From the NCBI GenBank assembly GCA_017616955.1, contig JAFZXD010000097.1:1-13824 (forward strand): 13,824 nucleotides of DNA, read 5' to 3'. Position numbers and translations under genes: made by a program. This stretch comes from Eubacterium sp. Its GTDB lineage: Bacteria > Bacillota > Clostridia > Lachnospirales > Lachnospiraceae. Below the pieces are notes generated by a model. It searched no databases and was not told where the DNA came from. It was given only the letters and a program-made list of their open reading frames with translations. The stretch's first letter is position 1; each line of letters begins with the position of its first letter. This document shows, one piece after another, positions 1-13,753 of this stretch.

Positions 1-46
1 GAGGTTCGTTTATCCTGAATAATCTTTTCTGAACAAGAGAATGATT

Positions 47-51
47 GGGAG
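47..51 (+). promoter_or_regulatory. ribosome binding site deciding the start of the ABC ATPase
   Basis: GGGAG lies 10 nt before the ATG at 62. The earlier in-frame ATG at 41 has only a weak purine run upstream. The protein from 62 also begins directly with the strand typical of these ATPases (MSYIELKNV), so 62 is preferred. Confidence 0.6.
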
Positions 52-61
52 CGATGATAAT

Positions 62-760
62 ATGTCGTATATTGAACTGAAAAATGTTGAAAAGGAATAC
101 CGTGGAGAAGTCAAAGTTCTGGCCGTCCATGATATGAGCTTTACGATTGAAGAAGGTGAGCTGGTTGCTATTCTCGGACAAAGCGGTGCGGGAAAGACAA
201 CTCTCCTTAACATGCTCGGAGGTATGGACAGTCCTACCGGTGGATCGATCGTTGTCGACGGTAAAGAGATATCCGGAATGAAGAACAGAGAACTGGTCAG
301 ATACAGAAGAAATGATATCGGTTTCATCTTCCAGTTCTATAATCTGGTTGCAAACCTTACCGCGGTAGAGAATGTTGAACTGGCATGCCAGCTTTGCAAG
401 GATGCATTTAATCCTGTTGATGTCATGTATGAGGTGGGACTTGGTGAGAGACTTAAGAATTTCCCAAGTCAGCTATCAGGTGGAGAGCAGCAGAGAGTTG
501 CGATCGCGAGAGCTATCGCAAAGAATCCGAAGATACTGCTTTGCGATGAACCGACAGGAGCACTTGATTCTGAAACAGGAAAGAAGATCATAGAGCTTCT
601 TTTACTGACATGCAGAAATCGAAATGTAACTACTATAATAGTTACTCATAATTCTGACATAGCAAAGATATGCGATAAGATCATAAAAGTGAAAAACGGA
701 ACTGTTGATAAGATTACTGTAAATGAATCTCCACTTAGTGTGGACGATATTGACTGGTAG
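62..760 (+). CDS. ABC transporter ATP-binding protein, LolD/MacB-like
   Basis: This is the cytoplasmic ATPase of an FtsX/MacB-type ABC system, expected to drive the permease encoded immediately downstream. All nucleotide-binding motifs are intact in the 232-residue product: Walker A GQSGAGKT at about 39-46, Q-loop glutamine near 91, signature LSGGEQQR near 138-145, Walker B ILLCDEP near 158-164 followed by the GALD D-loop, and the switch histidine near 196. The length is normal for a stand-alone LolD/MacB/YtrE-like subunit. It ends 3 nt before the permease start, which indicates one operon and probable translational coupling. An alternative start at 41 would add seven residues. The operon promoter is not recognisable in the few upstream bases. 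The substrate cannot be told from the sequence. Such pairs move lipids, lipoproteins, peptides or antibiotics, or act as mechanical transducers. Confidence 0.93.
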
Positions 761-763
761 CTT

Positions 764-3706
764 ATGATAGTAAAAAATACACTGAAGAAAATAGGGAAAT
801 CATTCGGAAGATTTATATCACTTGTTGCTATAATTCTTATCGGAGTTGGATTTTATGCGGGCATCAGACAGTCAATGCCTGCTATTCGTGATGTCCAGAA
901 TCGTTTTACAAAGGACACAAATATGATGGATCTTCATGTTGTAAGTACGCTGGGACTTACTGATTCAGACGTGGAAGAACTATCGAAACTGCCTGATGTA
1001 GATATGGTTACGGGCGGATACTCGAAGTACGTTTACAGTGATGAAGATGTTATACGTGTTATGTCCATAGATCTGGATATAGATATATTTCAGATGAAGG
1101 ACGGCAAATATCCGACAGAAACTAATGAGTGTCTGGCGGATTATAGGAATTATAAAGTCGGAGATATAGTCAGGATAACCGAGCCTCTGAAAACGTCAGA
1201 TGACGATGACGAAGAAGATGATGAGGATGAGAATAAGGATGACATTAACTGTCATACTTATGTTGTTTCGGGTACTGTTGTATCTCCTATTTATATGGGA
1301 AATGACCTCGGCACGGTAAATCTTGGAAATGGTGAACTGAAGTCATATATCCTTGTTAAAGATGATTGTTTTGATTATGACACTTATACAGATGTCTATA
1401 TAACGATGGATAAGACTGAGGAAGATGTCCCTTATTCTGAATCTTATGATAAAAAACTGAAGAAGCTTAAAAAGTCAGTTGAGTCGATCAAATCAAAGAG
1501 ACAGAAAGCAAGAGAAGATGAACTCTTTGAAGAGGCTAAGAATAAGGCTTATGACAAGGTAGAAGAGAAACGTTCTGAGATAGAGTCGGATGTCCGTAAG
1601 GAAGTTGAGACTGAGGTCCGCAAGAAGATAAAAGAAGAGCAGGATGCTCAGAAGAGCAAACTGAGAGAACAGGCGAGTAAACTTGGAACTACATTTGAGA
1701 AGTTGATAGGTACTCTGTCGGATAAAGTTCAGAGTGCACTTTCACCTGTAACGGATGAGCAGGTTAAGAAGCTTGTTGATGAGCAGATGGATGATGCCAT
1801 GGAAGAGGCTATGGATACGGCTAGAAAAGAAGCTGTAGATAAGATAGATATTCCTGAGTGCAAGTGGATAATCCAGACAAGAAATGAAGTTGTTACTTCA
1901 TATAAGATCCTCGTGGATCAGTACCGCGAAGTTGAAAGTATAGCGGATATAATCCCTATATTCTTTATTGTGATAGTTATATTGATGACGTCAAATACAA
2001 TGTCGAGAATGATAGCTGAAGAGCGTCTTGAGATGGGTACATTTACCTCACTTGGATATTCGAATGTGGCTATCATCGGCGGCTATATGATCTATGTATT
2101 GGTTGCTACGATATTTGGAGCGGCCGGCGGATATTTTCTGGGAGTCAGGTTCCTGCCGGATTTTGTCTATGCATGTTTTCCTGTCTCACTGCCGGATATA
2201 TCATTTACATTCAGGCCTGTCATGTTCTGGAGCTGCATGGGTGTATCGTTCGTTGTTATGACTCTGGTAACGGTTGTCTCATGTTTGAAGGAACTTAAGT
2301 CTAAGCCGGCATATCTGATGAGACCGGTTCCGCCTAAGAGTGGTAGAACGCTTCTTTTGGAGCGGGCAGGATTCATATGGGATAAGATTACATTTTCCTG
2401 GAAGACAACTATCAGAAACATTGCAAGATACAGAGGCCGTGGCCTAATGACTGTCATCGGAGTAGGTGGATGTACGTTCCTGATGTTTATCGGATTTGCG
2501 ATAAGAGATTGTACAGGAACGGTTGGTGATAAGCAGTTTGATCAGGTGCTTCACTATGATGTTATGGCTGTTCTTGGGGAGGATGTGAAGTCATTTGATG
2601 GTATACCTCTAAAGAAGAATGAGCTTACCCGTGATGAGCTTGGTGATCTGTTGAAGGATCCGCTCATGTTCAGACAGGAAGTTATGAAGGTGGAGAATAA
2701 GGAAAATTACAGTCTGGATGTTTACCTTATTGTAGTTGATTCGGATGATCCGCTTTTTGACCGATATATGACACTTCGAGAGGCGAATCCAAGAGATGTT
2801 AAGGCTGAGCCGGTTGACGGTTCTGATATAGAAGAGGGTACGCCACTTGAGTTGAGTGACGATAAGGTCATCGTGACTCCGAGGATAGCATATAAAATGG
2901 ATGCGGGGATAGGCGCAAAGCTAAAGATGACAGATTCGGATAATGAAGAATACGAAGTGACTGTCGGTGGAGTTGCCGAGAACTATGTATCCAACTATAT
3001 CTATATGTCTGAGAAGCTATATAAGAAGATATTTGGACAGGATGTAAAGTATAACGCACTTGTTGCAGCAGATGGAACCGGCGGAGTTCAGAGAGCGAAG
3101 GACTCGGTTGAAGAATTGGGATTCTTTGAGAGTATCATAAATATTTATAAAAATGAAACAGCCGGATCTGATGAAGGTGAAAAAATACAGATAGCAAGTG
3201 ATGAAACAAGTGAACTGACTAAAAAACTCTACAAGGTTGAAAGTTTTGTAAGTGTTAATACAACTGATGTGGTCCTGAAAAGGGCAAATGAAGCCATAAA
3301 GGGACTGGATATGGTGGTCGTGATGCTGGTATGCATAGCTTCGCTGCTTGCATTTACTGTCCTGTATAACCTGAATGCGATAAACATCAGTGAGAGGACA
3401 AGAGAGATAGCGACACTTAAGGTGCTGGGTTTTACGCCGGTTGAAACAAATGATTACATTTACAGGGAATCAATAATAAACGGAATTCTGGGAATAGCCG
3501 CAGGTCTGTTGATATCACCTTATCTTCACGGAAGAGTAATGGATGTCATAAGTGTTGATACGCTGGTTTTCCTTAGAGAGGTAAAGACGCAGAGCTTTAC
3601 TTATGCAGCGGTCTTATCGATGATATTTCTTCTGATAATGCTGGTTGTGACATTTTTCAAACTTACAAAGATTGATATGATAGAGTCGCTTAAGAGCGTA
3701 GATTAA
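764..3706 (+). CDS. large ABC transporter permease with two FtsX/MacB domains and a coiled-coil extracytoplasmic region
   Basis: This is the membrane partner of the preceding ATPase. The 980-residue protein reads as two FtsX-type halves. Half 1 has a membrane helix near 17-33, a large extracytoplasmic segment (about 34-393) and helices near 394-412, 436-465 and 485-508. Half 2 has a helix near 560-580, a second external domain (about 581-846) and helices near 847-868, 903-918 and 946-966. The cytoplasmic coupling-type segment follows the first helix of each FtsX core: ERLEMGTFTSLGYS at 420-433 and ERTREIATLKVLGF at 877-890. The first external domain holds a highly acidic run (145-160, Asp/Glu plus Asn and Lys) and a charged heptad-like helix (about 226-305), probably a coiled coil. 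Only a weak ribosome site precedes the ATG, which fits coupling to the ATPase. No clear rho-independent terminator follows the stop. The family call is secure. The substrate is unknown. Confidence 0.88.
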   Translation: MIVKNTLKKIGKSFGRFISLVAIILIGVGFYAGIRQSMPAIRDVQNRFTKDTNMMDLHVVSTLGLTDSDVEELSKLPDVDMVTGGYSKYVYSDEDVIRVMSIDLDIDIFQMKDGKYPTETNECLADYRNYKVGDIVRITEPLKTSDDDDEEDDEDENKDDINCHTYVVSGTVVSPIYMGNDLGTVNLGNGELKSYILVKDDCFDYDTYTDVYITMDKTEEDVPYSESYDKKLKKLKKSVESIKSKRQKAREDELFEEAKNKAYDKVEEKRSEIESDVRKEVETEVRKKIKEEQDAQKSKLREQASKLGTTFEKLIGTLSDKVQSALSPVTDEQVKKLVDEQMDDAMEEAMDTARKEAVDKIDIPECKWIIQTRNEVVTSYKILVDQYREVESIADIIPIFFIVIVILMTSNTMSRMIAEERLEMGTFTSLGYSNVAIIGGYMIYVLVATIFGAAGGYFLGVRFLPDFVYACFPVSLPDISFTFRPVMFWSCMGVSFVVMTLVTVVSCLKELKSKPAYLMRPVPPKSGRTLLLERAGFIWDKITFSWKTTIRNIARYRGRGLMTVIGVGGCTFLMFIGFAIRDCTGTVGDKQFDQVLHYDVMAVLGEDVKSFDGIPLKKNELTRDELGDLLKDPLMFRQEVMKVENKENYSLDVYLIVVDSDDPLFDRYMTLREANPRDVKAEPVDGSDIEEGTPLELSDDKVIVTPRIAYKMDAGIGAKLKMTDSDNEEYEVTVGGVAENYVSNYIYMSEKLYKKIFGQDVKYNALVAADGTGGVQRAKDSVEELGFFESIINIYKNETAGSDEGEKIQIASDETSELTKKLYKVESFVSVNTTDVVLKRANEAIKGLDMVVVMLVCIASLLAFTVLYNLNAINISERTREIATLKVLGFTPVETNDYIYRESIINGILGIAAGLLISPYLHGRVMDVISVDTLVFLREVKTQSFTYAAVLSMIFLLIMLVVTFFKLTKIDMIESLKSVD

Positions 3707-3760: not shown

Positions 3761-3789
3761 TTGCTAAATCGAACAAAAATAGGTATAAT
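3761..3789 (+). promoter_or_regulatory. sigma-A-type promoter for the SbcD/SbcC-like operon
   Basis: A TTGCTA -35 box at 3761-3766 is separated by exactly 17 nt from a perfect TATAAT -10 box at 3784-3789. Transcription would start near 3796, a dozen or so bases before the structured element, giving a leader of about 207 nt before the ATG at 4003. It may serve the downstream genes, a separate small RNA, or both. Confidence 0.75.
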
Positions 3790-3809
3790 ATGCTAGTTAT
3801 GGTATCGTT

Positions 3810-3944
3810 ACTATTCACAGTTAAGAGATAGCATTGTAAAACAACTGCTTGCATGTTGTTTTTGCAAGGGTATCTCTTAGTACCTGCGAAGCAGGTAACT
3901 CAAAAGGCACGATTAAGAGTGCGTATTGAGTTACTGTGAATAGT
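3810..3944 (+). repeat. compact four-way-junction inverted-repeat element (candidate structured leader RNA or MITE)
   Basis: The outer arms ACTATTCACAGT (3810-3821) and ACTGTGAATAGT (3933-3944) are perfect 12-bp inverted repeats. They enclose three hairpins. A: 3822-3830 pairs with 3871-3879 (9 bp perfect), extended inside by 3834-3845 with 3855-3867, with one bulge. B: 3881-3887 with 3891-3897 (7 bp, GAA loop). C: 3897-3903 with 3926-3932 (7 bp) plus 3907-3910 with 3919-3922. The stems tile the segment almost without unpaired bases; A3897 could pair in either B or C. It lies about 14 nt downstream of the likely transcription start. I recognise no named riboswitch or RNA family. A transposon-derived MITE is also possible, because the outer arms are flanked by TTA on both sides if the arm is taken to begin at 3811. 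The pairing is directly visible; the role is not. Confidence 0.72.
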
Positions 3945-4002
3945 TAGATTGATAGTTGAACAGAAAGTTCAATGAAAAGCTTTAGAAAAATAAGGTGACA
4001 AC

Positions 4003-5067
4003 ATGAAGTTTATTCATATTGCTGATGTTCATCTTTTCGCTACTCCTGATAAGGATTATGAGTGGGGCGAAAACAGAACTAAAGAGATTGAAGAGACATT
4101 TGAAAAAGTAATAGATGCTTGTAATGAGCGAGATATAGATCTTCTGCTTATAGCCGGTAATCTTTTCGACAGATCTCCATCAGTTGAAGATCTAAAGTAT
4201 GTCGACGATAAGCTGAACCGACTTGAGAAGACAAGAACAATCCTTCTTTCGGGATCGGATGATTATATCCCGATGGGACTTACAAGTTCGGCATATAAGT
4301 TTAAGTCGCGTACGGTTCTGCTTCCTTCGGGCAAGACGACGAATGCTTATTTGAAGGGAATCAACACCTGTGTTACAGGTTACAGCTATGCTAAACCGAC
4401 TTACACGGAAAGAGTTCTCGAACAGATAGATCCCGGACGTGAGAATGCGATAAACATCCTGATAGGTCATGGTGGAGATAAGCTTCACATGCCTTTCCGA
4501 AAAGAAGTTATTGCTGCTAAGGGATATGATTATGTCGCTATGGGATATATCAGAAAACCTGTACATATCCTCAAGAACCGTATGGCATACGCAGGTTCGC
4601 CTGAACCTCTTGGACCGGCTGAAACCGGTAGACACGGATATGTTTACGGAGAGATAACTGATGCCGGAACGAAGATTACGTGGTGTCCTATAGCAAGAAG
4701 AAATTATGTGGATATAAGCATTACGCTTAATCCTGACCTGTCTGCGGAAGAGATAACCAAGACAGTTGAGGAGAAGATGCTTAAGCTTGGAAATGAGAAT
4801 ATATATAAAATTGTTCTCAGAGGTTTCTCAAATAATAATGAGAAGATAGATTTTTCAAGAATTAAAAACAGATATAATATTCGAGAGATACTCAATATGA
4901 CTATCTCAAATGAAGATGAAAGAACACTTCGAATTGAGAACGAAACAAATATGATGGGAAGCTTCATTAGAGAAGTCAGAGAAAGCTATACACTTGATGA
5001 AACTATCAGGGACAAAGCACTCCGATATGGAATGGAAGCTCTCATTATGGCAGGAGAAGATAAATAA
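4003..5067 (+). CDS. SbcD/Mre11/YhaO-like metallophosphoesterase-fold protein with a degenerate active site
   Basis: The 354-residue protein has the order and spacing of the SbcD/YhaO nuclease family, which normally uses two metal ions to cut DNA ends alongside an SMC-like ATPase. Motif I is intact (ADVHL, D8 and H10). Motif II reads AGNLFD (residues 51-56), with the metal-binding Asp changed to N53. Motif III reads GSDD (84-87) where GNHD is expected. Motif IV keeps H156 in IGHGGD. Motif V reads GYIRKP (181-186) where GHIHKP is expected. The surrounding family text is preserved (AYAGSPEPL at 195-203), so these look like point replacements in an aligned frame. Five of the eight metal ligands known from Mre11 appear substituted, so nuclease activity is doubtful. 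AAGGTGA lies 4 nt before the ATG. The stop codon directly abuts the ATPase-like gene, so the two are expected to be cotranscribed and to act together. The fold call is firm; the inactivity is inference. Confidence 0.85.
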   Translation: MKFIHIADVHLFATPDKDYEWGENRTKEIEETFEKVIDACNERDIDLLLIAGNLFDRSPSVEDLKYVDDKLNRLEKTRTILLSGSDDYIPMGLTSSAYKFKSRTVLLPSGKTTNAYLKGINTCVTGYSYAKPTYTERVLEQIDPGRENAINILIGHGGDKLHMPFRKEVIAAKGYDYVAMGYIRKPVHILKNRMAYAGSPEPLGPAETGRHGYVYGEITDAGTKITWCPIARRNYVDISITLNPDLSAEEITKTVEEKMLKLGNENIYKIVLRGFSNNNEKIDFSRIKNRYNIREILNMTISNEDERTLRIENETNMMGSFIREVRESYTLDETIRDKALRYGMEALIMAGEDK

Positions 5068-6801
5068 ATGTACGTTACAAAGCTCTTGATAAGAGATTTT
5101 GGAAAATTTCATAACAGAAATATGGATTTTGCCCCGGGTATAAATATCGTTGTGGGAAATGAAGGAACCGGAAAGTCAACATTGCGTGATTTCCTTGTTG
5201 GGCTTATCTACGGTATTCCGAGAAGAGAAGGAATCACAAAGGTTCGTTCAAACTACGATCTTAGAAAACCTAAGGGACGTTCGGGTTATTCCGGAACGGC
5301 ATATATTAAGAGTGATGATAAGTCATATCTGGTTGAGAGAAACTTCCTCGCCGGCGCCAGAAAGGCTTCGGTTTTGGATGTTGCTTCCGGACGTGATGTC
5401 AGACTTAATAATGTGGATACTTTGAGTGGTACACTTTGTGAGACTGACAAAAACACTTATCTTGATACAAGATGTATAATAGAGGATGAGTCAAGCCGTG
5501 CCGATCTTCAGGAATATCTCATAAATATTACTTTGACAGGAACATCTAACATTAACAAGGATGAGGCTATAAAGTACCTTGAAAATGAAAAGAAATCTCA
5601 TGTTCCCAGACCTCTTATCAGACGACTTGATGAGCTTGATGAGAAACTGTCTGAGTATGAGACGGTTGATGATGAGATAGAAGTCGTTGAAGAAGAACTT
5701 AAGAGAATAAATGATGAATTCATGATGGAGGCTGAACGCCGTAAGAGAGAAGCTCGACAGATGGTTGAGAATGAAGACGGAACAGTTTCTTATAAAAATG
5801 ATAGTTCATTTGACGAAAAGATAGATATCCTAACCGAAAAGGATACAACTATCGGAGCCAGCAATAAAGCTGCCGATGCAGAAGAGGCTGCGGAGAAAGA
5901 ACGTAAGAAAAAAGAGAAAGACGGAATCAAGTTCACTGATCGTATTCCTGTTATTCTCGGAACCGGTGTTTTGGTTGTCCTTATAATCGCCGGAATAGTT
6001 ACGTTACTTCCTTTTGAACCTGTAATAAGATCGCTGTTCGTTATATTTACAGCATTGTTTGTTCTGTATACTATATTTGAAGGTTTCCGTATAAAAGGAT
6101 ACTTCAATTCGGACTCGAATGGTGAAGAGGTTCCGGATGAGGATGAGTTCCAGAGAGTCCTTGATGAACTTAAAGAAGAAGCGGCTCAGCAGGAACAGCT
6201 GGAATTCGATATGGAATTTGCAAAAGATTACCAGGAGCAGAAAGAGATACTGAACGATATGCTTGAAAAGCTTCTTGTAAGACGCGGGGAGAGAAATAAA
6301 CTTCGTCAGGAATTTGATCAGGTATTTAAGAAGAAGAGTGAACTTGAAGATGATATGAAAGCTATTGATTTTGCTATCAAAAAGATTAATGCTCTTGCAG
6401 AAAAGTATCGTGTAGATGCATTTAAGAATCTTCTTGGTCACGTATCAACATATATCGGAGCTCTGACATTGGGAGAATTCAGAGGACTTGCTTTCAATTC
6501 AGAAGGTGAAGTTGTGCTGAAGGGAGACTATAAAACAGTTCCTCTTTCCAGTCTTAGTCAGGATGATTCCAGAAAAGTTTATCTTGCAGTCAGACTCAGT
6601 ATCGTAAAGTTCCTTGCTAAAGAGAAGCTTCCGCTTATTATAGACGGTACTTCTTCTATAAAGACTGAGGAAGAGATAAAAGCTCTGGTAGACTCACTGG
6701 TATCAATGAATGAAGAGCAGATTATCATTCTTACGGCAAATGCGGGAATGAATCAGGTATTCAAGAATAAAGGGGTTAAGACGAATCTTATTACCCTATA
6801 A
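5068..6801 (+). CDS. YhaN/SbcC-like AAA ATPase-fold protein with central membrane hairpin and degenerate C-terminal motifs
   Basis: This is the partner of the preceding SbcD-like protein; its ATG follows that gene's TAA with no gap, and AGGAGA lies 10 nt upstream. The 577 residues begin with an SMC/SbcC-type head: a MYVTKLLIRDFGKF strand, then Walker A GNEGTGKST at 30-38. A charged helical region (about 184-235) follows, then two membrane helices (about 293-315 and 319-339), a second helical arm (about 360-445) and a C-terminal half-head. YhaN of Bacillus has the same plan, with membrane helices between the arms, but is much longer, so the arms here are short. The C-terminal motifs are eroded: the signature reads LSQDDSRKVYLAVRL (496-510) without the usual glycine; Walker B LPLIID (521-526) is followed by Gly instead of an acid; the expected D-loop acids are missing; and TANAG (556-560) stands where a Cys-His H-loop is usual. 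ATP binding may survive, but hydrolysis is doubtful. A terminator follows. Confidence 0.82.
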   Translation: MYVTKLLIRDFGKFHNRNMDFAPGINIVVGNEGTGKSTLRDFLVGLIYGIPRREGITKVRSNYDLRKPKGRSGYSGTAYIKSDDKSYLVERNFLAGARKASVLDVASGRDVRLNNVDTLSGTLCETDKNTYLDTRCIIEDESSRADLQEYLINITLTGTSNINKDEAIKYLENEKKSHVPRPLIRRLDELDEKLSEYETVDDEIEVVEEELKRINDEFMMEAERRKREARQMVENEDGTVSYKNDSSFDEKIDILTEKDTTIGASNKAADAEEAAEKERKKKEKDGIKFTDRIPVILGTGVLVVLIIAGIVTLLPFEPVIRSLFVIFTALFVLYTIFEGFRIKGYFNSDSNGEEVPDEDEFQRVLDELKEEAAQQEQLEFDMEFAKDYQEQKEILNDMLEKLLVRRGERNKLRQEFDQVFKKKSELEDDMKAIDFAIKKINALAEKYRVDAFKNLLGHVSTYIGALTLGEFRGLAFNSEGEVVLKGDYKTVPLSSLSQDDSRKVYLAVRLSIVKFLAKEKLPLIIDGTSSIKTEEEIKALVDSLVSMNEEQIIILTANAGMNQVFKNKGVKTNLITL

Positions 6802-6805
6802 GAAG

Positions 6806-6849
6806 AGAAGGTGGAATCGCAAGAAACGGTTTCACCTTTCCTGTTTTTT
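6806..6849 (+). terminator. rho-independent terminator of the SbcD/SbcC-like operon
   Basis: An 11-bp stem (6808-6818 with 6828-6838, including two G-U pairs) and a 9-nt loop begin 6 nt after the stop codon. A T-rich tail with six T at 6844-6849 follows. Confidence 0.75.
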
Positions 6850-6908: not shown

Positions 6909-6963
6909 TTTCTGCAACGGTAGTATTTGAATAAATTTAATATCGTGAAAATATAAATTGTAT

Positions 6964-6972
6964 GAGGAAAGG
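6964..6972 (+). promoter_or_regulatory. ribosome binding site deciding the folC start
   Basis: The purine run GAGGAAAGG precedes the ATG at 6977, with GAGG ending 9 nt before it. This run lies inside the coding part of the alternative ATG at 6962, which has no ribosome site of its own. Confidence 0.6.
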
Positions 6973-6976
6973 TGAG

Positions 6977-8338
6977 ATGGACAGAATATATACATATGAA
7001 GAGGTAGATAGATATATAAGTGATATCCCGAGGTTTACGAAGAAGACGAAGGTGGATAATACGAAGATTCTTCTGGAGAAGCTTGGGAATCCGCAGAAGA
7101 AGTATAAGTCGGTTCATATAGCCGGAACAAACGGAAAGGGTTCTGTGGCGAAGATGATGTCGCTTCTTATTGAGAAGAGTGGGAAGAAGACAGGACTTTT
7201 TACGTCTCCTCATCTTATTAAGATTAACGAGAGATTTTGCATTAATGGAATTGATATTTCGGATGAAAGACTGGTCGAGTTGTTTAACCGTGTTATGGAA
7301 GCAGTAGAAGAATGTACTATAGAGCTTAAAGAGGTTGAATCGTCCGACGATGGAAATATATGGGTATTTCAGCATCCTGCATATTTCGAGTTTATATTTT
7401 GTATGGCTGCTCTTTACTTTGCTGAGGAAGGCTGCGATTATGTAGTATATGAGACCGGACTTGGTGGAAGACTGGATGCTACAAATGTCATCGAGCCGGA
7501 GGTTTCTATCATTACATCTATCGGGTTTGATCATATGCAGTATCTTGGCAATACTATAGAAGAGATTGCAGGTGAGAAAGCAGGGATTATAAAGCAGGGT
7601 ATTCCTGTTGTTTATAATACCGGAGATGAAAAGGCGGATAAAGTTATAGAAAAGAAAGCTGAACAGATGGGCTCGGACTACTTTAATGTGCCGGAAGTAT
7701 GGGAAGGCATTTCCGATGATTTGAAGGACAGTATCATGTCATATGTAAACGTATCTGTTCCTTATCAGATTGAAAATGTACATACAGCAGTAATTGCCTG
7801 GATGGTTATGCAAGGCGTTATAGATAAGAATGGTGCTCTTCAGGATATGGTGAGTGAGATGTCATTTTCAGGATTGTCATCATTCTATTGGCCGGGGCGT
7901 ATGGAATATATACTTCCTAATGTGGTCATAGATGGAGCACATAATGAAGATGCTATCAGGGAATTCATCAAGGCGATTAAGAGAGAACAGGATGAAAAGA
8001 ATAAGACTAAGTTTAGCCTTATGTTTGCAGTTTCGAGTGATAAGGATTATGAGAGTATCATAAGGATGCTGTGTGATGGTTTGAATCTTGAAAAAATATA
8101 TGTGACCGAGATAGCCTCTGACAGAAAAACAGATGTTGCTGATGTTGTGGAACTGTTTCTTAAATATTTACCGAAGGAGAATCAACTTAATGTTGTCGGA
8201 AACAGTGATCTGAAGAAATCTTTTGAGATGGCAATCGGAGAAACAGACGAAGATACATTACTTGCTATAGTGGGTTCACTCTATATGGTTGGTGAAGTGA
8301 AGGCGTTACTGGAGAATAAGGTAAATGAGAATAATTGA
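6977..8338 (+). CDS. folC: bifunctional folylpolyglutamate synthase/dihydrofolate synthase
   Basis: FolC adds glutamate to folates, and in many bacteria to dihydropteroate, using ATP in the cytoplasm. In the 453-residue product the Mur-ligase-type P-loop GTNGKGS is at about 50-56, FTSPHL at about 75-80, YETGLGGRLDATN at about 158-170, SIGFDH at about 181-186, IAGEKAGIIK at about 197-206 and, in the C-terminal domain, FYWPGRME (about 303-310) and DGAHNEDA (about 319-326). The length is normal. The start at 6977 is chosen for its ribosome site; the ATG at 6962 would add five residues. It begins a three-gene run with the amidohydrolase and the aldo/keto reductase and overlaps the former by 14 bp. 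I saw no convincing promoter in 6909-6961. Whether it also has dihydrofolate synthase activity cannot be read from the sequence. Confidence 0.93.
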   Translation: MDRIYTYEEVDRYISDIPRFTKKTKVDNTKILLEKLGNPQKKYKSVHIAGTNGKGSVAKMMSLLIEKSGKKTGLFTSPHLIKINERFCINGIDISDERLVELFNRVMEAVEECTIELKEVESSDDGNIWVFQHPAYFEFIFCMAALYFAEEGCDYVVYETGLGGRLDATNVIEPEVSIITSIGFDHMQYLGNTIEEIAGEKAGIIKQGIPVVYNTGDEKADKVIEKKAEQMGSDYFNVPEVWEGISDDLKDSIMSYVNVSVPYQIENVHTAVIAWMVMQGVIDKNGALQDMVSEMSFSGLSSFYWPGRMEYILPNVVIDGAHNEDAIREFIKAIKREQDEKNKTKFSLMFAVSSDKDYESIIRMLCDGLNLEKIYVTEIASDRKTDVADVVELFLKYLPKENQLNVVGNSDLKKSFEMAIGETDEDTLLAIVGSLYMVGEVKALLENKVNENN

Positions 8339-9221
8339 TGTACATACACATACATTTCCGGACAAGATAGCTGCTGCGGCGCTTGAGGCTTTGCAGAAGG
8401 ATAGTGGGAGTAAGGCTCATACAGATGGAACGGTAAGTGGACTCAGAAAATCTATGGAAGAAGCGGGAGTAGATGTGTCGGTCGTTTTGCCGGTGGTTAC
8501 AAACCCGATAAAGGCTTCTTCAATCAATAACTATTCTGCGAAACAAAATGAGGATTTTGAGAAAACGGGAGTATTTATGATCGGCGGAATACATCCTGAA
8601 ACTCCCGAATATAAGAAGGTTCTTAGAGAAGCGGCTGACATGGGGGTGAAGGGTGTGAAGCTTCATCCTGATTATTATGGAATCAGTTTCGATGATATAA
8701 GAATGAAGAGGATAATCGATGCGGCTTCGGAGGCAGGGCTTTTTGTTATAACTCATGCCGGAATCGATATCGGTCTTTATCCGCCTATCTGTTGTTCTTT
8801 GGATTCGATTCTCAATGTTTTAAAGGATGTAAGACCTGAAACACTTATTCTGGCACATATGGGCGGCTGGATGAATTGGGAAGAAGTGACAGAGGTGCTT
8901 GCTCCTGTGATGGCGGAATATAATTCAGAGATAAGAAACAAAAACGGAAGAAAAGAGAATGGGGTATATCGTGATACGGCATTTTCTATAGGGGAAATCG
9001 TCTGGCAAGGTGAAGGAGATCATAAGGGATATCATCAGATGCCGGATGAACAGTTTAGAAAAATGGTTAAGACCTTTGGCTCTGAGAATATTCTTTTTGC
9101 AACAGACTGCCCGTGGGCTGAGCAGAAGGATTATGTTATACGAATTAATAATATGGGGTTGGAAGAACAGGAATTAGAGAATATATTCCATAAAAATGCG
9201 GAAAAAATATTGAATTTATAA
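8325..9221 (+). CDS. metal-dependent hydrolase, amidohydrolase-2 family (TIM barrel)
   Basis: The 298-residue protein matches the amidohydrolase-2 (ACMSD-like, COG2159-type) group of cytoplasmic hydrolases and decarboxylases. The metal-site motifs are in order: DVHTH at 5-9 (H7, H9), GVKLHP at 109-114, THAGID at 143-148 (H144), LAHMGGW at 176-182 (H178) and FATDCPW at 258-264 (D261). The first ATG lies inside the end of folC, with GGAG at 8311-8314 and a 10-nt gap, so translation is probably coupled to folC. The aldo/keto reductase follows after 16 nt. The substrate is unknown. Folate breakdown or a link to the neighbouring reductase would be speculation. Confidence 0.85.
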   Translation: MRIIDVHTHTFPDKIAAAALEALQKDSGSKAHTDGTVSGLRKSMEEAGVDVSVVLPVVTNPIKASSINNYSAKQNEDFEKTGVFMIGGIHPETPEYKKVLREAADMGVKGVKLHPDYYGISFDDIRMKRIIDAASEAGLFVITHAGIDIGLYPPICCSLDSILNVLKDVRPETLILAHMGGWMNWEEVTEVLAPVMAEYNSEIRNKNGRKENGVYRDTAFSIGEIVWQGEGDHKGYHQMPDEQFRKMVKTFGSENILFATDCPWAEQKDYVIRINNMGLEEQELENIFHKNAEKILNL

Positions 9222-9237: not shown

Positions 9238-10275
9238 ATGAAGAATATAGTATTGGGAAAAACAAATATATCAGTTCCACAGAATGGATTTGGTGCACTT
9301 CCGATTCAGAGAGTATCGTTAGATGAAGCTGTTTCTATTTTGAGAAAAGCATATGATGGTGGAATGCGATTCTTTGATACGGCCAGAGCTTATAGTGACA
9401 GTGAAGTGAAACTGGGAGAGGCTTTTGGCACGGGATATATCAATCGTGAAGATATCATTATAACAACAAAGACTGCTTCGAAGACACCGGAAGATTTCTG
9501 GAAGGATTTGGAAACATCCCTTACTAATCTGAAGACAGATTATATTGATGTATATCAGTTTCATATGATGAATCAATGCTGGGTTCCGGGTGATGGAACA
9601 GGAATGTATGAGTGCATGATGGAAGCGAAAAAGCAGGGAAAGATTCGTCATATAGGTGGAACTGCTCATAAGATTGGGGTCGCAAGAGAGCTTGTTGAAT
9701 CGGGATTTTATGAAACGCTGCAGTACCCAATAAGTTATCTGGCCGATGATAAAGAAATAGAACTTATAAAGCTTTGTCAGAAGAATAATGTAGGACTTAT
9801 ATGTATGAAGGGTCTTGCCGGCGGACTGATAACAAATTCAAAAGCTGCGATGGCATTTGTAGGACAGTTCGAAGGGGCTGTTCCGATTTGGGGTATCCAG
9901 CGAGAGTTGGAACTTGATGAATGGCTGTCTTATATGGAAGAAACTCCTGAGATGACAGAAGAGCTTGCTTCGTTCATAAAGAAAGAGCAGGATGAGCTTA
10001 AGGGAGAGTTCTGCCGAGGCTGTGGCTATTGTATGCCTTGTTCGGTAGATATAATGATAAATAACTGCAATAGAATGAGTCTGATGTTAAGGCGTGCTCC
10101 AAGTCAGGCTTGGCTTAATGACTACTGGCAGGGAGAAATGCAGAAAATTGAGAACTGCATAGAATGTGGTGCATGTCTGCCAAAATGTCCTTATGGACTT
10201 AATATTCCGCGACTTCTTAAGAAGAATCTGGAGGATTATCGGGAAGTGTTGGCAGGTAATAGAAAAGTACAGTAG
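9238..10275 (+). CDS. aldo/keto reductase with C-terminal double 4Fe-4S domain
   Basis: This is a predicted cytoplasmic oxidoreductase of the COG1453 type. The N-terminal TIM barrel (about 1-245) carries aldo/keto reductase features: FDTARAY with D47 and Y52, TTKTAS with K78, QFHM with H109, and a GGTAHK segment at 140-145. The C-terminal ferredoxin-like part has two cysteine clusters: C259, C262, C265 and C268, with C277 nearby; and C307, C310, C313 and C317 in the classic C-x2-C-x2-C-x3-C-P pattern. The first cluster lacks the usual proline after its fourth cysteine (CSVDI), so C277 may serve as a ligand. A strong AAAGGGGTGG ribosome site precedes the ATG, 16 nt after the amidohydrolase. 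It ends the operon; a terminator follows. The substrate and electron partner are unknown. Confidence 0.9.
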   Translation: MKNIVLGKTNISVPQNGFGALPIQRVSLDEAVSILRKAYDGGMRFFDTARAYSDSEVKLGEAFGTGYINREDIIITTKTASKTPEDFWKDLETSLTNLKTDYIDVYQFHMMNQCWVPGDGTGMYECMMEAKKQGKIRHIGGTAHKIGVARELVESGFYETLQYPISYLADDKEIELIKLCQKNNVGLICMKGLAGGLITNSKAAMAFVGQFEGAVPIWGIQRELELDEWLSYMEETPEMTEELASFIKKEQDELKGEFCRGCGYCMPCSVDIMINNCNRMSLMLRRAPSQAWLNDYWQGEMQKIENCIECGACLPKCPYGLNIPRLLKKNLEDYREVLAGNRKVQ

Positions 10276-10437: not shown

Positions 10438-11178
10438 ATGTCTGATTTATTAAATGTTAAAGATTTACATGTTAAGGTAGCTGATACCGAAATCCTTCAT
10501 GGTATCAATCTTAAGATTGGTCGTGGAGAGACTCATGTTATCATGGGACCTAACGGTGCAGGTAAGTCTACCCTTGGATATGCCATAATGGGGAATCCTA
10601 ATTATGAAGTTTTAAGCGGAAGCATTAACTTCAAGGATGAAGATATCACAGACAAAGAGACAAATGAGCGTGCGAGGGCTGGTATCTTCCTTTCATTCCA
10701 GAATCCTATCGAGGTTCCGGGTATATCACTTTCTAACTTTATTAGAAATGCCAGTGACACTATAACTGGTACAAGAGCTCGTCTTTGGGACTTCCGTAAG
10801 TCTCTTGAAAAGCAGATGGAGCTTCTTAATATGGATAAGTCTTATGCAGACAGGGATTTGAATGTTGGTTTCTCCGGTGGTGAGAAGAAGAAGGCTGAGA
10901 TTCTTCAGATGCTTATGCTTAAGCCTGATCTTGCTATACTTGATGAGACAGATTCAGGACTTGATGTTGATGCTGTTAGAACAGTATCAGACGGAGTTAA
11001 AGCATTCCATGATAATGGAGATGGATCACTCATCATCATTACACACAGCACAAGAATTCTTGAGGCGCTTAAGGTTGATTACACACATATTCTTGTTGAT
11101 GGAAAGATTGTAGAAACCGGAGATGCTTCTCTTGTTGATGAGATAAATGCACACGGTTTTGAAAAATACGTTTCATAA
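10438..11178 (+). CDS. sufC: Fe-S cluster assembly ATPase SufC
   Basis: SufC is the ATPase subunit of the SufBCD scaffold that builds Fe-S clusters in the cytoplasm. The 246-residue protein has all ABC motifs: Walker A GPNGAGKST at 37-45, Q-loop in FLSFQNP (Q88), signature FSGGEKKKAEI (145-155), Walker B LAILDE (165-170) followed by TDSGLD, and H203 in ITHSTR. The SufC-specific features FLSFQNPIEVPG and FSGGEKKKAEILQ separate it from transporter ATPases. The length is typical. It is the first gene of the suf run; sufB follows after about 64 nt. No IscR-like or SufR-like operator is recognisable upstream. Confidence 0.97.
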   Translation: MSDLLNVKDLHVKVADTEILHGINLKIGRGETHVIMGPNGAGKSTLGYAIMGNPNYEVLSGSINFKDEDITDKETNERARAGIFLSFQNPIEVPGISLSNFIRNASDTITGTRARLWDFRKSLEKQMELLNMDKSYADRDLNVGFSGGEKKKAEILQMLMLKPDLAILDETDSGLDVDAVRTVSDGVKAFHDNGDGSLIIITHSTRILEALKVDYTHILVDGKIVETGDASLVDEINAHGFEKYVS

Positions 11179-11232
11179 GCTAAATAATCTGACAGCCGGT
11201 CGATTGAAGTGATATGAAACTAAGAAGAGTAT

Positions 11233-11239
11233 GAGGAAG
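11233..11239 (+). promoter_or_regulatory. ribosome binding site deciding the sufB start
   Basis: GAGGAAG, with GAGG ending 6 nt before the ATG at 11243, lies inside the first codons of the alternative ATG at 11231. That ATG has only a weak AAGAAG upstream. Confidence 0.55.
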
Positions 11240-11242
11240 AAT

Positions 11243-12658
11243 ATGGCAGATAAAGAAAAGACATACGTTGATGATGTTGACAGAAGTCTGTATGATTTTA
11301 GAAATGTCGATGAAGACGTTTATAAGGTTGCCGAGGGTCTTACTCCTGAGATTGTAGAGCAGATATCTAAGGAAAAGAATGATCCGCAGTGGATGGCAGA
11401 CTTTCGTCAGGAATCACTCAAAATATATAATAGAATAGAAATGAAAGAATGGGGTCCTCCGATCGATGGCCTCAATATGGATAATATAGTTACATATATT
11501 AAGCCTAAAGATAACAAAATGAGCGCTGACTGGGACGAGGTTCCGGAGGATATCAAGGATACATTTGAGAGACTTGGTATTCCGCAGGCAGAGAGAGAGT
11601 CTCTTGCCGGAGTTGGTGCACAGTATGACTCTGAGCTTGTTTATCATAACGTTCGTGAAGATGTTGCAAAGCAGGGAGTTATCTATACTGATCTCGAATC
11701 AGCTATGCACGGTGAGTATGGTGAAATGATCAAAGAACATTTCATGAAACTCATCACTCCACAGGATCATAAGTTTGCTGCCCTTCATGGTGCAGTATGG
11801 TCAGGAGGAAGTTTCGTATATGTTCCGCCTGGAGTTAAGGTAGAGATACCTCTTCAGTCATACTTCAGACTTAATGCTCCGGGAGCAGGTCAGTTCGAAC
11901 ATACTCTTATAATAGTAGATGAAGGAGCAGACCTTCACTTTATCGAAGGATGTTCAGCTCCTAAGTATAATGTTGCAAACCTTCATGCAGGTGCGGTTGA
12001 GCTTTTTGTAGGAAAGAATGCAAGACTCAGATACTCTACTATAGAGAACTGGTCTAAGAATATGTATAACCTGAATACAAAGAGAGCGACTGTAGAAGAA
12101 GGCGGAAAGATGGAATGGGTATCCGGTTCATTTGGATCTCATACTTCTTATCTTTATCCTATGACAATCCTTAAGGGAGATGATTCGAAGGTCGAATTCA
12201 CAGGTATTACATTTGCCGGTGAAGGACAGAACCTTGATACAGGACTTAAGGTTGTCCATACAGGTGAGAGAACTGTTTCTACAGTAAATACAAAGTCTAT
12301 CTCAAAGAGTGGCGGAATCAGTACATTCAGAAGTGCTGTTGTCATCGGACCTAAGGCAAAGGGATCTAAGTCAGCAGTAGACTGTTCATCACTCATGCTT
12401 GATGATATATCACGTTCTGATACGATTCCTGCTATGGATGTAAGATGTGACGATGTTGATATCGGACATGAAGCTAAGATCGGCCGTATCTCAGACGAGG
12501 CGATATTCTATCTCATGAGCCGTGGTATCTCAGAAGAAGATGCACGTGCTATGATCGTAAGCGGTTTTGCGGATAACGTATCCAAGGAACTTCCGCTTGA
12601 GTACGCAGTTGAGATGAATAACCTGATCAGACTTGAGATGAAGGGGTCGATTGGATAA
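11243..12658 (+). CDS. sufB: Fe-S cluster assembly scaffold protein SufB
   Basis: SufB is the scaffold subunit on which nascent Fe-S clusters form, working with SufC and SufD. The 471-residue product has the normal SufB length and beta-helix core: GAVWSGGSFVYVPPGV (183-198), EGCSAP (235-240), an internal SISKSGG segment (352-358) and the C-terminal SRSDTIP and GHEA motifs. Compared from memory with E. coli SufB, C381 in the DCSSL segment matches C405, and H409/E410 match H433/E434, with the same 28-residue spacing. The residues implicated in cluster assembly are therefore present. The start at 11243 (MADKEKTYVDD) is chosen for its ribosome site and its family-like N-terminus; the ATG at 11231 would add four residues. 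sufD follows after 39 nt. Confidence 0.96.
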   Translation: MADKEKTYVDDVDRSLYDFRNVDEDVYKVAEGLTPEIVEQISKEKNDPQWMADFRQESLKIYNRIEMKEWGPPIDGLNMDNIVTYIKPKDNKMSADWDEVPEDIKDTFERLGIPQAERESLAGVGAQYDSELVYHNVREDVAKQGVIYTDLESAMHGEYGEMIKEHFMKLITPQDHKFAALHGAVWSGGSFVYVPPGVKVEIPLQSYFRLNAPGAGQFEHTLIIVDEGADLHFIEGCSAPKYNVANLHAGAVELFVGKNARLRYSTIENWSKNMYNLNTKRATVEEGGKMEWVSGSFGSHTSYLYPMTILKGDDSKVEFTGITFAGEGQNLDTGLKVVHTGERTVSTVNTKSISKSGGISTFRSAVVIGPKAKGSKSAVDCSSLMLDDISRSDTIPAMDVRCDDVDIGHEAKIGRISDEAIFYLMSRGISEEDARAMIVSGFADNVSKELPLEYAVEMNNLIRLEMKGSIG

Positions 12659-12697
12659 TAATTGGAACTTTAAATACACAACCGGAAGAGGTTAAAG

Positions 12698-13753
12698 ATG
12701 AATAATATATCTACAAATAAGTTACCGGCTCCAACATGGACCTGGCTGAATGTAAACGAGCATAGGGTTGAGGTTCCGGAAAATGTCATAAAGGCTGAAA
12801 GCTCTTCAGAGAACATTCCTGAGGAGGTTAAGGTTGGAAAGGTTGACTTCAGTTCAATCTGCCTTGGTGATATAGAACTCGGTGCCGGCGAAGACTTCAG
12901 AAAATATTCTCATGTTGCAAAAACAGGAGGAAATTCATATACGGTTTCAGCCGGAGTTAAAGTGGCAGAACCGCTTCGTATAACATATGATTACAGTGGA
13001 AATGAATCTGCTGAGGAATGTAAGTTATCAAGGGTGGCTGTTGTTCTCGGAGATGATTCCGAGCTTACACTTGTTATTACATATAAGGGTAATCCGGGAT
13101 TTGCTGCTAGTGATATCAGAATCAAGGCAGCAAAGAATGCTAAGCTTACACTTGTCGAAGTATTCCAGCTGGATGACTCATCTACTTTCATCGGAAGTAT
13201 AGGTGGAAGATATCTTGATAACAGTGGTCTTAAGCTTATTCAGTTAACAACAGGATCTGCAAAGATGGGACTTGCCTGTGCTGCTGATCTTGATGGATAT
13301 AAGAGTTGGCTCAATATAGACACAGGATATCTCGTAGAAAAAGACGGTACACTTGATATTAATTATGTTGCAAGACACAGAGGCCGTCTGACTGATTCAA
13401 AGATTGCTGTCAGTGGTGTTCTGAGAGACAATGCTGATAAGACATTCAGAGGAACTATCGACTTCATTAAGGGTTGTAAGGATGCAACAGGAGATGAAAG
13501 AGAAGATGTGCTTCTTATGGATGAAGGAGTACATAACAATACAGTTCCGCTTATCCTTTGTGCGGAAGAAGATGTTGAAGGTGGTCACGGAGCTTCTATA
13601 GGTAAGATCTCCGATGAGATTCTGTTCTATCTTCAGGCAAGAGGAATTCCGGAAGACGAGATAAATGAGCTTATGGCTAAGTCCAGAATAGATGCTGTTG
13701 CAGGAAGAATTCCTGACGAGGTTACAAGAAATATGCTTCTATCTGAAGAGTAA
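12698..13753 (+). CDS. sufD: Fe-S cluster assembly protein SufD
   Basis: SufD is the SufB paralogue that completes the SufBCD complex and supports iron entry into the scaffold. The 351-residue protein has a divergent N-terminal half and a conserved SufB/SufD-type C-terminus: HNNTVPLILCAEEDVEGGHG (279-298), then SIGKISDEILFYLQARG (300-316). H297 matches E. coli SufD H360. The cysteine two residues earlier in E. coli (C358) is glycine here, as I recall for many Gram-positive SufD proteins. GAGG at 12688-12691 lies 6 nt before the ATG. The position between sufB and the next gene fits the clostridial suf order. Confidence 0.92.
   Translation: MNNISTNKLPAPTWTWLNVNEHRVEVPENVIKAESSSENIPEEVKVGKVDFSSICLGDIELGAGEDFRKYSHVAKTGGNSYTVSAGVKVAEPLRITYDYSGNESAEECKLSRVAVVLGDDSELTLVITYKGNPGFAASDIRIKAAKNAKLTLVEVFQLDDSSTFIGSIGGRYLDNSGLKLIQLTTGSAKMGLACAADLDGYKSWLNIDTGYLVEKDGTLDINYVARHRGRLTDSKIAVSGVLRDNADKTFRGTIDFIKGCKDATGDEREDVLLMDEGVHNNTVPLILCAEEDVEGGHGASIGKISDEILFYLQARGIPEDEINELMAKSRIDAVAGRIPDEVTRNMLLSEE

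What the first reader, a model, noticed from the sequence alone, without database searches (positions are those of the whole stretch)
4003..5067. SbcD/YhaO-like protein with most metal ligands replaced
The SbcD/Mre11 family reading frame is intact and easy to align. Motif II has GN for GD (N53), motif III has GSDD for GNHD (S85, D86), and motif V has GYIRKP for GHIHKP (Y182, R184). Only D8, H10 and H156 of the eight expected ligands remain. The rest of the protein keeps family text and length, so this is not a decaying pseudogene. It may be a pseudo-nuclease kept for DNA or partner binding, or an enzyme with a rebuilt metal site.
Basis: partly seen in the sequence, partly recalled or inferred. 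Interest (0 to 1): 0.72.

Follow-up and report, generated by a model that had tools for sequence, protein, structure and literature searches.

The report
Dead-enzyme Mre11–Rad50-like membrane pair
In a genus of gut and rumen bacteria, a two-protein machine whose relatives cut DNA using ATP appears to have lost both its cutting site and its ATP-burning site, yet evolution still guards both proteins closely, so it probably now works as a membrane-bound scaffold instead of an enzyme.

Summary
The 354-aa SbcD/YhaO-like protein (D) keeps 3 of 8 catalytic-site residues (D8, H10, H156); a 96%-identical orthologue has lost H156 too. The partner ATPase directly downstream (C, 577 aa, Rad50/YhaN-like, predicted membrane hairpin) is also broken: ABC signature, second Walker B acid and D-loop are changed. 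D orthologues occur in 56 of 61 genus genomes searched; the 60 of 62 genus loci that could be read in full keep 1-3 of 8. In 135 gene pairs, all 75 with a complete D site have an intact C signature; of 60 with an incomplete site, 57 have a broken one and 3 do not, so D seems to decay first. A single loss is rejected (p-AU 7e-6). Purifying selection is strong (median dN/dS D 0.045, C 0.054, SufC 0.055). At matched divergence, conservation shifts from ATPase motifs to the coil beside the hairpin. The genome keeps a separate SbcD. Best reading: a non-catalytic, membrane-anchored Mre11–Rad50-type scaffold. Its task is unknown; sufCBD follows in 43 of 50 testable loci. A rebuilt metal site or decay is unlikely.

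The parts
4003..5067 (+). D: SbcD/YhaO/Mre11-like pseudo-nuclease, 354 aa
4024..4032 (+). motif I, D8 and H10 retained
   Evidence: sequence; D8 in 121 of 121 aligned sequences, H10 in 80 of 121
4159..4161 (+). motif II, N53 where the bridging Asp is expected
   Evidence: N in 52 of 60 degenerate loci
4255..4260 (+). motif III, S85 D86 where Asn-His is expected
   Evidence: N kept in 3 of 60 and H in 1 of 60 degenerate loci
4468..4470 (+). motif IV, H156 retained here; Cys in the 96%-identical orthologue
4546..4554 (+). motif V, Y182 and R184 where two His are expected
   Evidence: R at 184 in 34 of 60, Y or G at 182 in 49 of 60 degenerate loci
5068..6801 (+). C: Rad50/YhaN-like partner, 577 aa, degenerate ABC ATPase with a predicted membrane hairpin; starts right after the stop of D
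   Evidence: ORF; AAA_23 38.6 bits, cut-off 27; AF2 model mean pLDDT 79, best Foldseek PDB match Rad50 3auy E 4.6e-11
5155..5181 (+). Walker A GNEGTGKST, intact here
   Evidence: lost in 10 of 60 degenerate loci by a GK[ST] rule
5728..5796 (+). coil motif EAERRKREARQMVENEDGTVSYK, in the most conserved 20-residue block (221-240) of C in the degenerate set
5944..6093 (+). two hydrophobic helices (predicted membrane hairpin), C residues about 293-342
   Evidence: hydropathy 2.81 and 2.24; helices 293-313 and 318-342 in the model
6550..6579 (+). degenerate ABC signature SLSQDDSRKV (complete sister: YLSAGTMEQI)
6628..6669 (+). degenerate Walker B and D-loop LPLIIDGTSSIKTE (complete sister: MPLIIDDIFSSYDE)
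3761..3789 (+). promoter-like TTGCTA-17-TATAAT upstream of D; the -10 region is shared with L187
   Evidence: such matches in the region are no more frequent than in shuffles (18 against 22)
6807..6839 (+). terminator-like hairpin after C
8325..9221 (+). amidohydrolase (PF04909), often between C and sufC in relatives
10438..13753 (+). sufC, sufB, sufD, downstream of C on the same strand
   Evidence: Pfam ABC_tran, SUFBD_core; sufC within 5 kb in 43 of 50 genus loci with at least 2.5 kb of sequence after C

Best explanation
D and C are the two subunits of a Mre11-Rad50-type (SbcD-SbcC / YhaO-YhaN-like) complex that has given up catalysis and is kept as a membrane-anchored structural scaffold. 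D keeps the phosphoesterase fold, the capping domain and predicted C-terminal helices but cannot assemble the two-metal centre. C keeps the head fold, and in 50 of 60 degenerate loci the Walker A motif, but should not close a productive ATP sandwich because its signature, second Walker B acid and D-loop are gone. It is tied to the membrane by a two-helix hairpin about where Rad50 has its zinc hook. What is selected is the coil next to the membrane and the body of D: a binding surface, not an active site. Repair-type nuclease work is left to the ordinary SbcCD elsewhere in the genome. Shown here: both motif sets lost, open frames, purifying selection, more than one loss, D-first order among the pairs read, shift of conservation, a separate SbcD gene. 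Inferred: lack of activity, the D-C complex, membrane insertion, scaffold role, division of labour with SbcCD.
For: 3 of 8 D-site residues. C signature and Walker B/D-loop degenerate. 75 of 75 complete D sites pair with an intact C signature, 57 of 60 incomplete ones with a broken one; 3 exceptions (L016, L017, L025) have C intact, none of the 135 the reverse (the rule was written after the rows were seen, and 4 of the 75 pass only because it is lenient). dN/dS medians D 0.045 (17 pairs), C 0.054 (12), SufC 0.055 (16), SufB 0.019 (14), SufD 0.117 (10), amidohydrolase 0.124 (6). At matched divergence (22 against 22 sequences, about 62% identity) entropy rises in Walker A 0.46 to 1.25, signature 0.32 to 1.43, Walker B/D-loop 0.60 to 1.11, and falls in the coil motif 1.05 to 0.51 and second coil 1.23 to 0.80. 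One origin of the degenerate D rejected, p-AU 7e-6, ligand columns left out. Folds kept. Separate complete SbcD with an SbcC-like gene beside it in the same genome.
Against: No activity was measured; loss of ligands is strong but not absolute proof. D8 is invariant (60 of 60) and D53 becomes specifically Asn in 52 of 60, so some constraint on the pocket remains. Walker A is kept in 50 of 60 and the second Walker B acid in 15 of 60 degenerate loci, so ATP may still be bound and could switch the complex. The mean entropy of the eight former site positions in degenerate D is not significantly above that of other positions (P 0.10). Too few independent contrasts for a sign test of D and C. A second C lineage (P0232-P0239 and kin) has a broken signature, and its D partner could not be linked; a complete D there would break the D-first order. 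The D-C complex and its membrane topology were not modelled, and the C model is of middling confidence (pTM 0.57).
Confidence: 0.72

Rival explanations
1. The dead pair serves iron-sulfur cluster assembly: it is a membrane platform or assembly factor for the SufBCD machine encoded just downstream.
For: sufC follows C on the same strand within 5 kb in 43 of 50 genus loci with at least 2.5 kb after C, 47 of 57 in all; gaps of 17-40 nt without a terminator-like hairpin in L131, L162, L189, L191; no suf match was found in the flanks held of the loci with a complete D.
Against: 7 of 50 loci lack suf nearby. Degenerate pairs outside the genus (L010-L013, L166, L169) have no suf in the flanks held either, so loss of catalysis does not track suf. 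Hairpins lie between C and sufC in L134, L135, L140, L157, L158, L163, L204, and a terminator-like one follows C in the window. The joint absence of D and SufB in G019 and G023 does not help: in G023 a neighbour of the locus is missing too, so an assembly gap is likely. Synteny in one genus may be mere inheritance.
Confidence: 0.15
2. The pair still binds DNA ends or the nucleoid and tethers them to the membrane, an anchoring version of SMC-like repair proteins, perhaps helping the ordinary SbcCD (overlaps with the best explanation).
For: Mre11 and Rad50 folds retained; a complete SbcD with an SbcC-like gene is present to do the cutting; the Bacillus relative YhaN/SbcE is described as an SMC-like repair protein (passages read in PMC4205851), and yhaONM is listed with the SOS regulon (passages in PMC3896406).
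Against: No DNA-binding residue was tested; no LexA box was searched for; the head motifs of the ATP sandwich are degenerate; the gain of constraint lies in the coil, not the ATPase motifs.
Confidence: 0.3
3. The metal site is rebuilt: D8, H10, N53, D86 or H156 hold one metal in a new geometry and the enzyme acts on another substrate.
For: D8 invariant and N53 near-fixed in degenerate loci.
Against: H10, H156 and position 86 vary (H10 kept in 32 of 60, H156 in 26 of 60, position 86 shows twelve different residues); H156 is Cys in the 96%-identical orthologue; the partner ATPase is lost in parallel, which a new phosphoesterase activity alone would not explain.
Confidence: 0.06
4. Relaxed selection: the pair is on its way to becoming a pseudogene.
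For: Graded loss of catalytic residues in several lineages.
Against: dN/dS near 0.05, like SufC and below SufD and the amidohydrolase; open frames in the genus genomes searched; a more strongly conserved coil block.
Confidence: 0.03

Closest known systems
YhaO-YhaN (SbcF-SbcE) of Bacillus and the complete YhaO/YhaN-like pairs of Lachnospiraceae
   Same: Two adjacent genes, phosphoesterase then ATPase; in most of the Lachnospiraceae pairs read one or two hydrophobic segments lie in the middle of C (none in L019, L021, L024); the complete sister L164/L008 is 54% identical in D. The name SbcF is recalled
   Different: Here the nuclease site and the ATPase signature, Walker B and D-loop are lost; the coil block is more conserved than the ATPase motifs
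SbcCD / Mre11-Rad50
   Same: Fold of both subunits and gene pairing
   Different: No metal centre, no ABC signature; C is 577 aa with a predicted membrane hairpin instead of long coils with a zinc hook; D scores below the TIGR00619 cut-off (41.8 against 77.65 bits)
Inactive phosphoesterase B-subunits of eukaryotic replicative DNA polymerases (against the active archaeal DP1)
   Same: A calcineurin/Mre11-like phosphoesterase turned into a scaffold after loss of catalytic motifs, as described in passages of PMC4996933
   Different: Those sit in a polymerase holoenzyme; here a paired ATPase is lost as well, more than once, in one bacterial family
VPS29 of the retromer (recalled; only a search listing was seen)
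   Same: Phosphoesterase fold used as a scaffold on membranes
   Different: Unrelated complex and no Rad50-like partner

Membership tests
SbcD/Mre11 nuclease | Calcineurin-like phosphoesterase fold with capping domain | tested here: met
SbcD/Mre11 nuclease | Complete set of metal ligands and catalytic histidine | tested here: not met
   3 of 8
SbcD/Mre11 nuclease | Curated NCBIfam SbcD model (TIGR00619) over cut-off | tested here: not met
   41.8 bits, cut-off 77.65; the complete YhaO-like paralogue L129 of a genome of the genus also falls short (53.3), the SbcD at L082 passes (160.6)
SbcD/Mre11 nuclease | Gene pair with a Rad50/SbcC-like ATPase | tested here: met
   C begins directly after D here; an adjacent same-strand ORF of at least 250 aa was found for 121 of 126 loci (by place and length) and 11 of 12 further loci
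SbcD/Mre11 nuclease | Mn-dependent nuclease activity | not testable with these tools
   needs purified protein
Rad50/SbcC/YhaN ABC ATPase | Walker A | tested here: met
   GNEGTGKST at C 30-38
Rad50/SbcC/YhaN ABC ATPase | ABC signature (LSxGT-like) | tested here: not met
   SLSQDDSRKV
Rad50/SbcC/YhaN ABC ATPase | Walker B with second acid and D-loop | tested here: not met
   IIDGTSSIKT against IIDDIFSSYD in the complete sister
Rad50/SbcC/YhaN ABC ATPase | Head fold of Rad50 | tested here: met
   Foldseek best hit 3auy, E 4.6e-11, probability 1.00, TM by target 0.59; model pTM only 0.57
Rad50/SbcC | Zinc hook (CxxC) at the coil apex | tested here: not met
   no CxxC in C, whose two cysteines are at 124 and 136; hydrophobic helices in the middle instead
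PADLOC anti-phage systems (GajA, PtuA and others) | Full-length match of the defence ATPase plus its partner | tested here: not met
   most of the 19 matches cover only the first 40-50 residues of C, two reach 175 and 246; D has no PADLOC match

The most novel reading that the evidence does not exclude
In one bacterial family the Mre11-Rad50-type machine was turned at least twice into a non-enzymatic, membrane-anchored scaffold, by a recurring order of steps (new conserved coil and membrane hairpin, then loss of metal motif III, then the bridging Asp, then the ABC signature, at times the P-loop), and in the window's genus this scaffold became part of the iron-sulfur (SUF) assembly unit.
Probability: 0.13. 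Interest if true: 0.82.

Novelty: new variant of a known kind. Interest (0 to 1): 0.62.

Why it matters
Natural loss of both catalytic sites of a Mre11-Rad50-type complex, in parallel and more than once, with strong selection on what is left, would separate the structural job of this widespread machine from its enzymatic job without any laboratory mutation. The complete sister proteins at about 50% identity make matched comparisons possible. The conserved coil block next to the membrane hairpin names a place to look for the unknown partner. It is also a caution: some public names for these proteins read exonuclease or SbcCD nuclease subunit.

Tried and rejected
Co-loss with SUF: SufB is missing in G019 and G023, the two genus genomes at 90% completeness or more that also lack the D orthologue, on separate branches of an RpoB tree. 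I first took this as two co-losses. In G023 a gene next to the locus in its sisters is missing too, so an assembly gap is as likely; for G019 the local neighbourhood was not resolved. Left out of the argument. Of the other three genomes without D, G474 has the pair cut by a contig start, G024 begins inside SufB and G476 has SufB split over contigs.

Sign test of the correlated loss of D and C on the tree: too few independent contrasts, p 1. AU test on the full 67-row set did not finish; a 26-row set gave p-AU 7e-6. That group was named after the larger trees were seen.

Linking the second broken C lineage (P0232-P0239, P0268-P0275 and kin) to a D: scans of viral contigs with P0092 and P0234 found no relatives.

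dN/dS for outgroup pairs (four, one of them with the incomplete L017): synonymous sites saturated, so there is no canonical baseline. Of 26 pairs tried, D entered the median for 17 and C for 12 (dS 0.03-1.6); three of the pairs share L131, two D values are zero because the proteins are identical, and values at dS above about 1 are rough. Defence systems: no convincing match. Rfam: nothing at the gathering threshold in the window. A first entropy comparison used a broader canonical set than the degenerate one; replaced by the matched one; a first attempt at matching failed because only one canonical row was present. The matched D comparison was only roughly matched (18 against 18, 69% against 64% identity).

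Rows dropped: 158 loci were reduced to 146 by identical last 150 residues of D; of these, 135 with a C and no gap at any ligand or signature position entered. The 75 complete ones include eight distant YhaO/YhaN-like loci (L122-L125, L127-L130). Under a strict LSxG[TSYNI] reading 71 of the 75 pass (L024, L052, L076, L172 do not).

Full report
Setting. The window is the whole of one contig of an incomplete genome (58.6% complete, 305 contigs). Named relatives are mostly Lachnospiraceae and Eubacterium sp. genomes, many with ruminant samples in their titles. Order of genes, all on the + strand: ABC transporter ATPase and FtsX-like permease (41-3706), D (4003-5067), C (5068-6801), a FolC-like Mur ligase (6962-8338), amidohydrolase (8325-9221), aldo-keto reductase with Fe-S domain (9238-10275), sufC, sufB, sufD (10438-13753).

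The observation. D has ADVHL, AGNLF, GSDD, GHGG and GYIRKP where complete relatives have DxH, GD, GNHD, GHGG and GHIHKP. A profile built from 121 sequences aligns these motifs with those of M. jannaschii Mre11 over about 250 positions. Three of eight positions are kept: D8, H10, H156. Which residues bind metal is recalled from P. furiosus Mre11: seven ligands plus a catalytic His. In the 96%-identical orthologue H156 is Cys.

The partner. C is a Rad50/YhaN-like protein with a hydrophobic hairpin in the middle and a Rad50-like head in the AF2 model. Walker A is intact, but the signature reads SLSQDDSRKV against YLSAGTMEQI in the complete sister L008/L164, and Walker B/D-loop IIDGTSSIKT against IIDDIFSSYD. 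Both enzymes of the pair are therefore degenerate by sequence.

Extent. Of 61 genus genomes searched, 56 hold a D orthologue; five do not, of which G474 has the pair cut by the contig start, G024 and G476 are broken inside sufB, and G019 and G023 lack it without a clear reason (see Tried and rejected). No internal stop was listed for 55; the 56th, G477, is cut by its contig end and its one stop appears to be the terminal one. Of 62 genus loci held (some of them the same genome from two collections), 60 could be read at all eight positions and have 1 to 3 of 8 (23 with 3, 21 with 2, 16 with 1); two are cut. Some metagenomic proteins that fall in the same clade keep 4 or 5 (P0010, P0025, P0043, P0063), so the loss is graded. 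Across the wider family, 355 of 397 sampled genomes have some match, distant paralogues included; outside this clade most of the loci that I read carry the complete form.

Coupling and order. Of 135 loci in which both genes could be read, 75 have a complete D site and all 75 an intact C signature. Sixty have an incomplete D site: 57 with a broken signature, 3 with an intact one (L016, L017, L025), none the other way round (rule set after seeing the rows, 4 of the 75 pass by leniency). Among the 60, Walker A is lost in 10 and the second Walker B acid kept in 15, so the signature is the part of C most consistently lost. So D seems to go first and C to follow. Within D, intermediates such as DHDEHHHH, DHDDHHHH and DHDSNHHH suggest that motif III goes first; D8 is never lost (60 of 60; 121 of 121). 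D53 becomes Asn in 52 of 60.

More than one loss. With the ligand columns left out, parsimony needs 9 changes of complete/incomplete on a 131-row D tree and 4 on a 67-row D+C tree (tree, count on 64 rows; 2 for the C signature). The complete L164 lies next to the window clade, and complete proteins lie with L010-L013 and L169. Holding the 17 degenerate rows of a 26-row set as one clade costs 55.5 log-likelihood units, p-AU 7e-6. The parsimony count does not by itself tell loss from regain.

Selection. NG86 dN/dS medians: D 0.045 (17 pairs), C 0.054 (12), SufC 0.055 (16), SufB 0.019 (14), SufD 0.117 (10), amidohydrolase 0.124 (6). Window against its 96%-identical orthologue: D 0.038, C 0.050, FolC 0.120. 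The pairs are not all independent and there is no canonical baseline, because the outgroup pairs were saturated.

What is conserved instead. With 22 complete and 22 degenerate C proteins of about 62% mean identity, entropy rises in Walker A (0.46 to 1.25), signature (0.32 to 1.43) and Walker B/D-loop (0.60 to 1.11), and falls in the coil block 214-242 (1.05 to 0.51) and second coil (1.23 to 0.80); the membrane helices change little (1.13 to 0.91 and 0.93 to 1.06). The complete set was chosen by signature and Walker B, which by itself lowers its entropy there; Walker A and the coil have no such bias. The coil motif and hairpin are already present in complete sisters (L008, P0341, P0350) but not in L016-L018, L168 or L170 in the same form, so they seem to have come before the loss of catalysis.

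Redundancy. The window's genome holds another phosphoesterase frame on contig 278 with DWHLG, GDVFD, AGNHD and GHLHGP motifs; it passes the SbcD model (160.6 bits, cut-off 77.65), and beside it lies the first 336 aa of an SbcC-like gene (136.6 bits to TIGR00618, whose full-length cut-off of 478.5 a fragment cannot reach). The single-contig genome G004 holds in addition a complete YhaO/YhaN-like pair (L129).

Neighbourhood. sufC follows C on the same strand within 5 kb in 43 of 50 genus loci with at least 2.5 kb of sequence after C (47 of 57 in all), with an amidohydrolase often in between; the upstream FtsX-like gene is seen in only a few. In L131, L162, L189 and L191 the gap to sufC is 17-40 nt without a terminator-like hairpin, while L134, L135, L140, L157, L158, L163 and L204 have hairpins in it (L145 and L159 could not be read), and in the window a terminator-like hairpin follows C. 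Degenerate pairs outside the genus (L010-L013, L166, L169) have no suf in the flanks held. This makes a SUF-related role possible but not established.

Mechanism. The best account is a pseudoenzyme pair: a Mre11-like body and a Rad50-like head and coil, fixed to the membrane by the hairpin, used as a binding scaffold. The change parallels the inactive phosphoesterase B-subunits of eukaryotic DNA polymerases, described as converted into scaffolds in passages read in PMC4996933. For the Bacillus relative, passages in PMC4205851 call SbcE an SMC-like protein involved in double-strand break repair and passages in PMC3896406 place yhaONM with the SOS regulon; the original SbcE paper was not read.

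Novelty. Searches of the paper library for SbcD or Mre11 with pseudoenzyme and catalytic-loss terms gave no paper holding enough of the terms, and a search with SbcCD and Lachnospiraceae found 17 papers of which the six titles shown are not on point. That covers open-licence papers only. The kind (pseudo-phosphoesterase scaffold) is known; the double, repeated loss in a Mre11-Rad50-type pair is to my knowledge a new variant.

Noticed in passing
window 3803-3946: A multi-branch structure (three hairpins closed by ACTATTCACAGT/ACTGTGAATAGT; RNA MFE -64 kcal/mol, z -8.5) sits between the promoter-like site and D. It is absent at the same place in the 96%-identical orthologue L187, and blastn found it in no other locus held apart from copies of the window itself, so it looks like a recent small insertion with inverted ends; no Rfam match.
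   Followed up: partly
proteins P0232-P0239, P0268-P0275 and kin: A second lineage of YhaN-like partners with a broken ABC signature (FLGHEVVRQ type) but, in the rows seen, intact Walker A and Walker B DD; some clusters are large (P0234 stands for 1101 sequences). Its D partner is unknown.
   Followed up: partly
L016, L017 (and L025): D with lost site residues next to a C with intact ATPase motifs: apparent early stages of the same process in other Lachnospiraceae.
   Followed up: partly
L009, L011, L012, L159-L162, L169, L204, L207: Partner ATPases of full length that have lost even the Walker A GK[ST] motif (KRRS and similar); in L200 it is shifted.
   Followed up: partly
window 9238-10275: Aldo-keto reductase with a C-terminal 4Fe-4S domain between the amidohydrolase and sufC; its place next to an Fe-S assembly operon may be meaningful.
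   Followed up: no
window against L187, FolC and amidohydrolase: FolC and the amidohydrolase are only 76-80% identical, with dS 1.3-1.7, while D, C and Suf are 94-98% identical with dS 0.6-0.8, as if one of the two segments had been exchanged.
   Followed up: no
G019, G023: Two genomes of the genus at 95-97% completeness without a D orthologue or SufB; an assembly gap was not excluded.
   Followed up: partly
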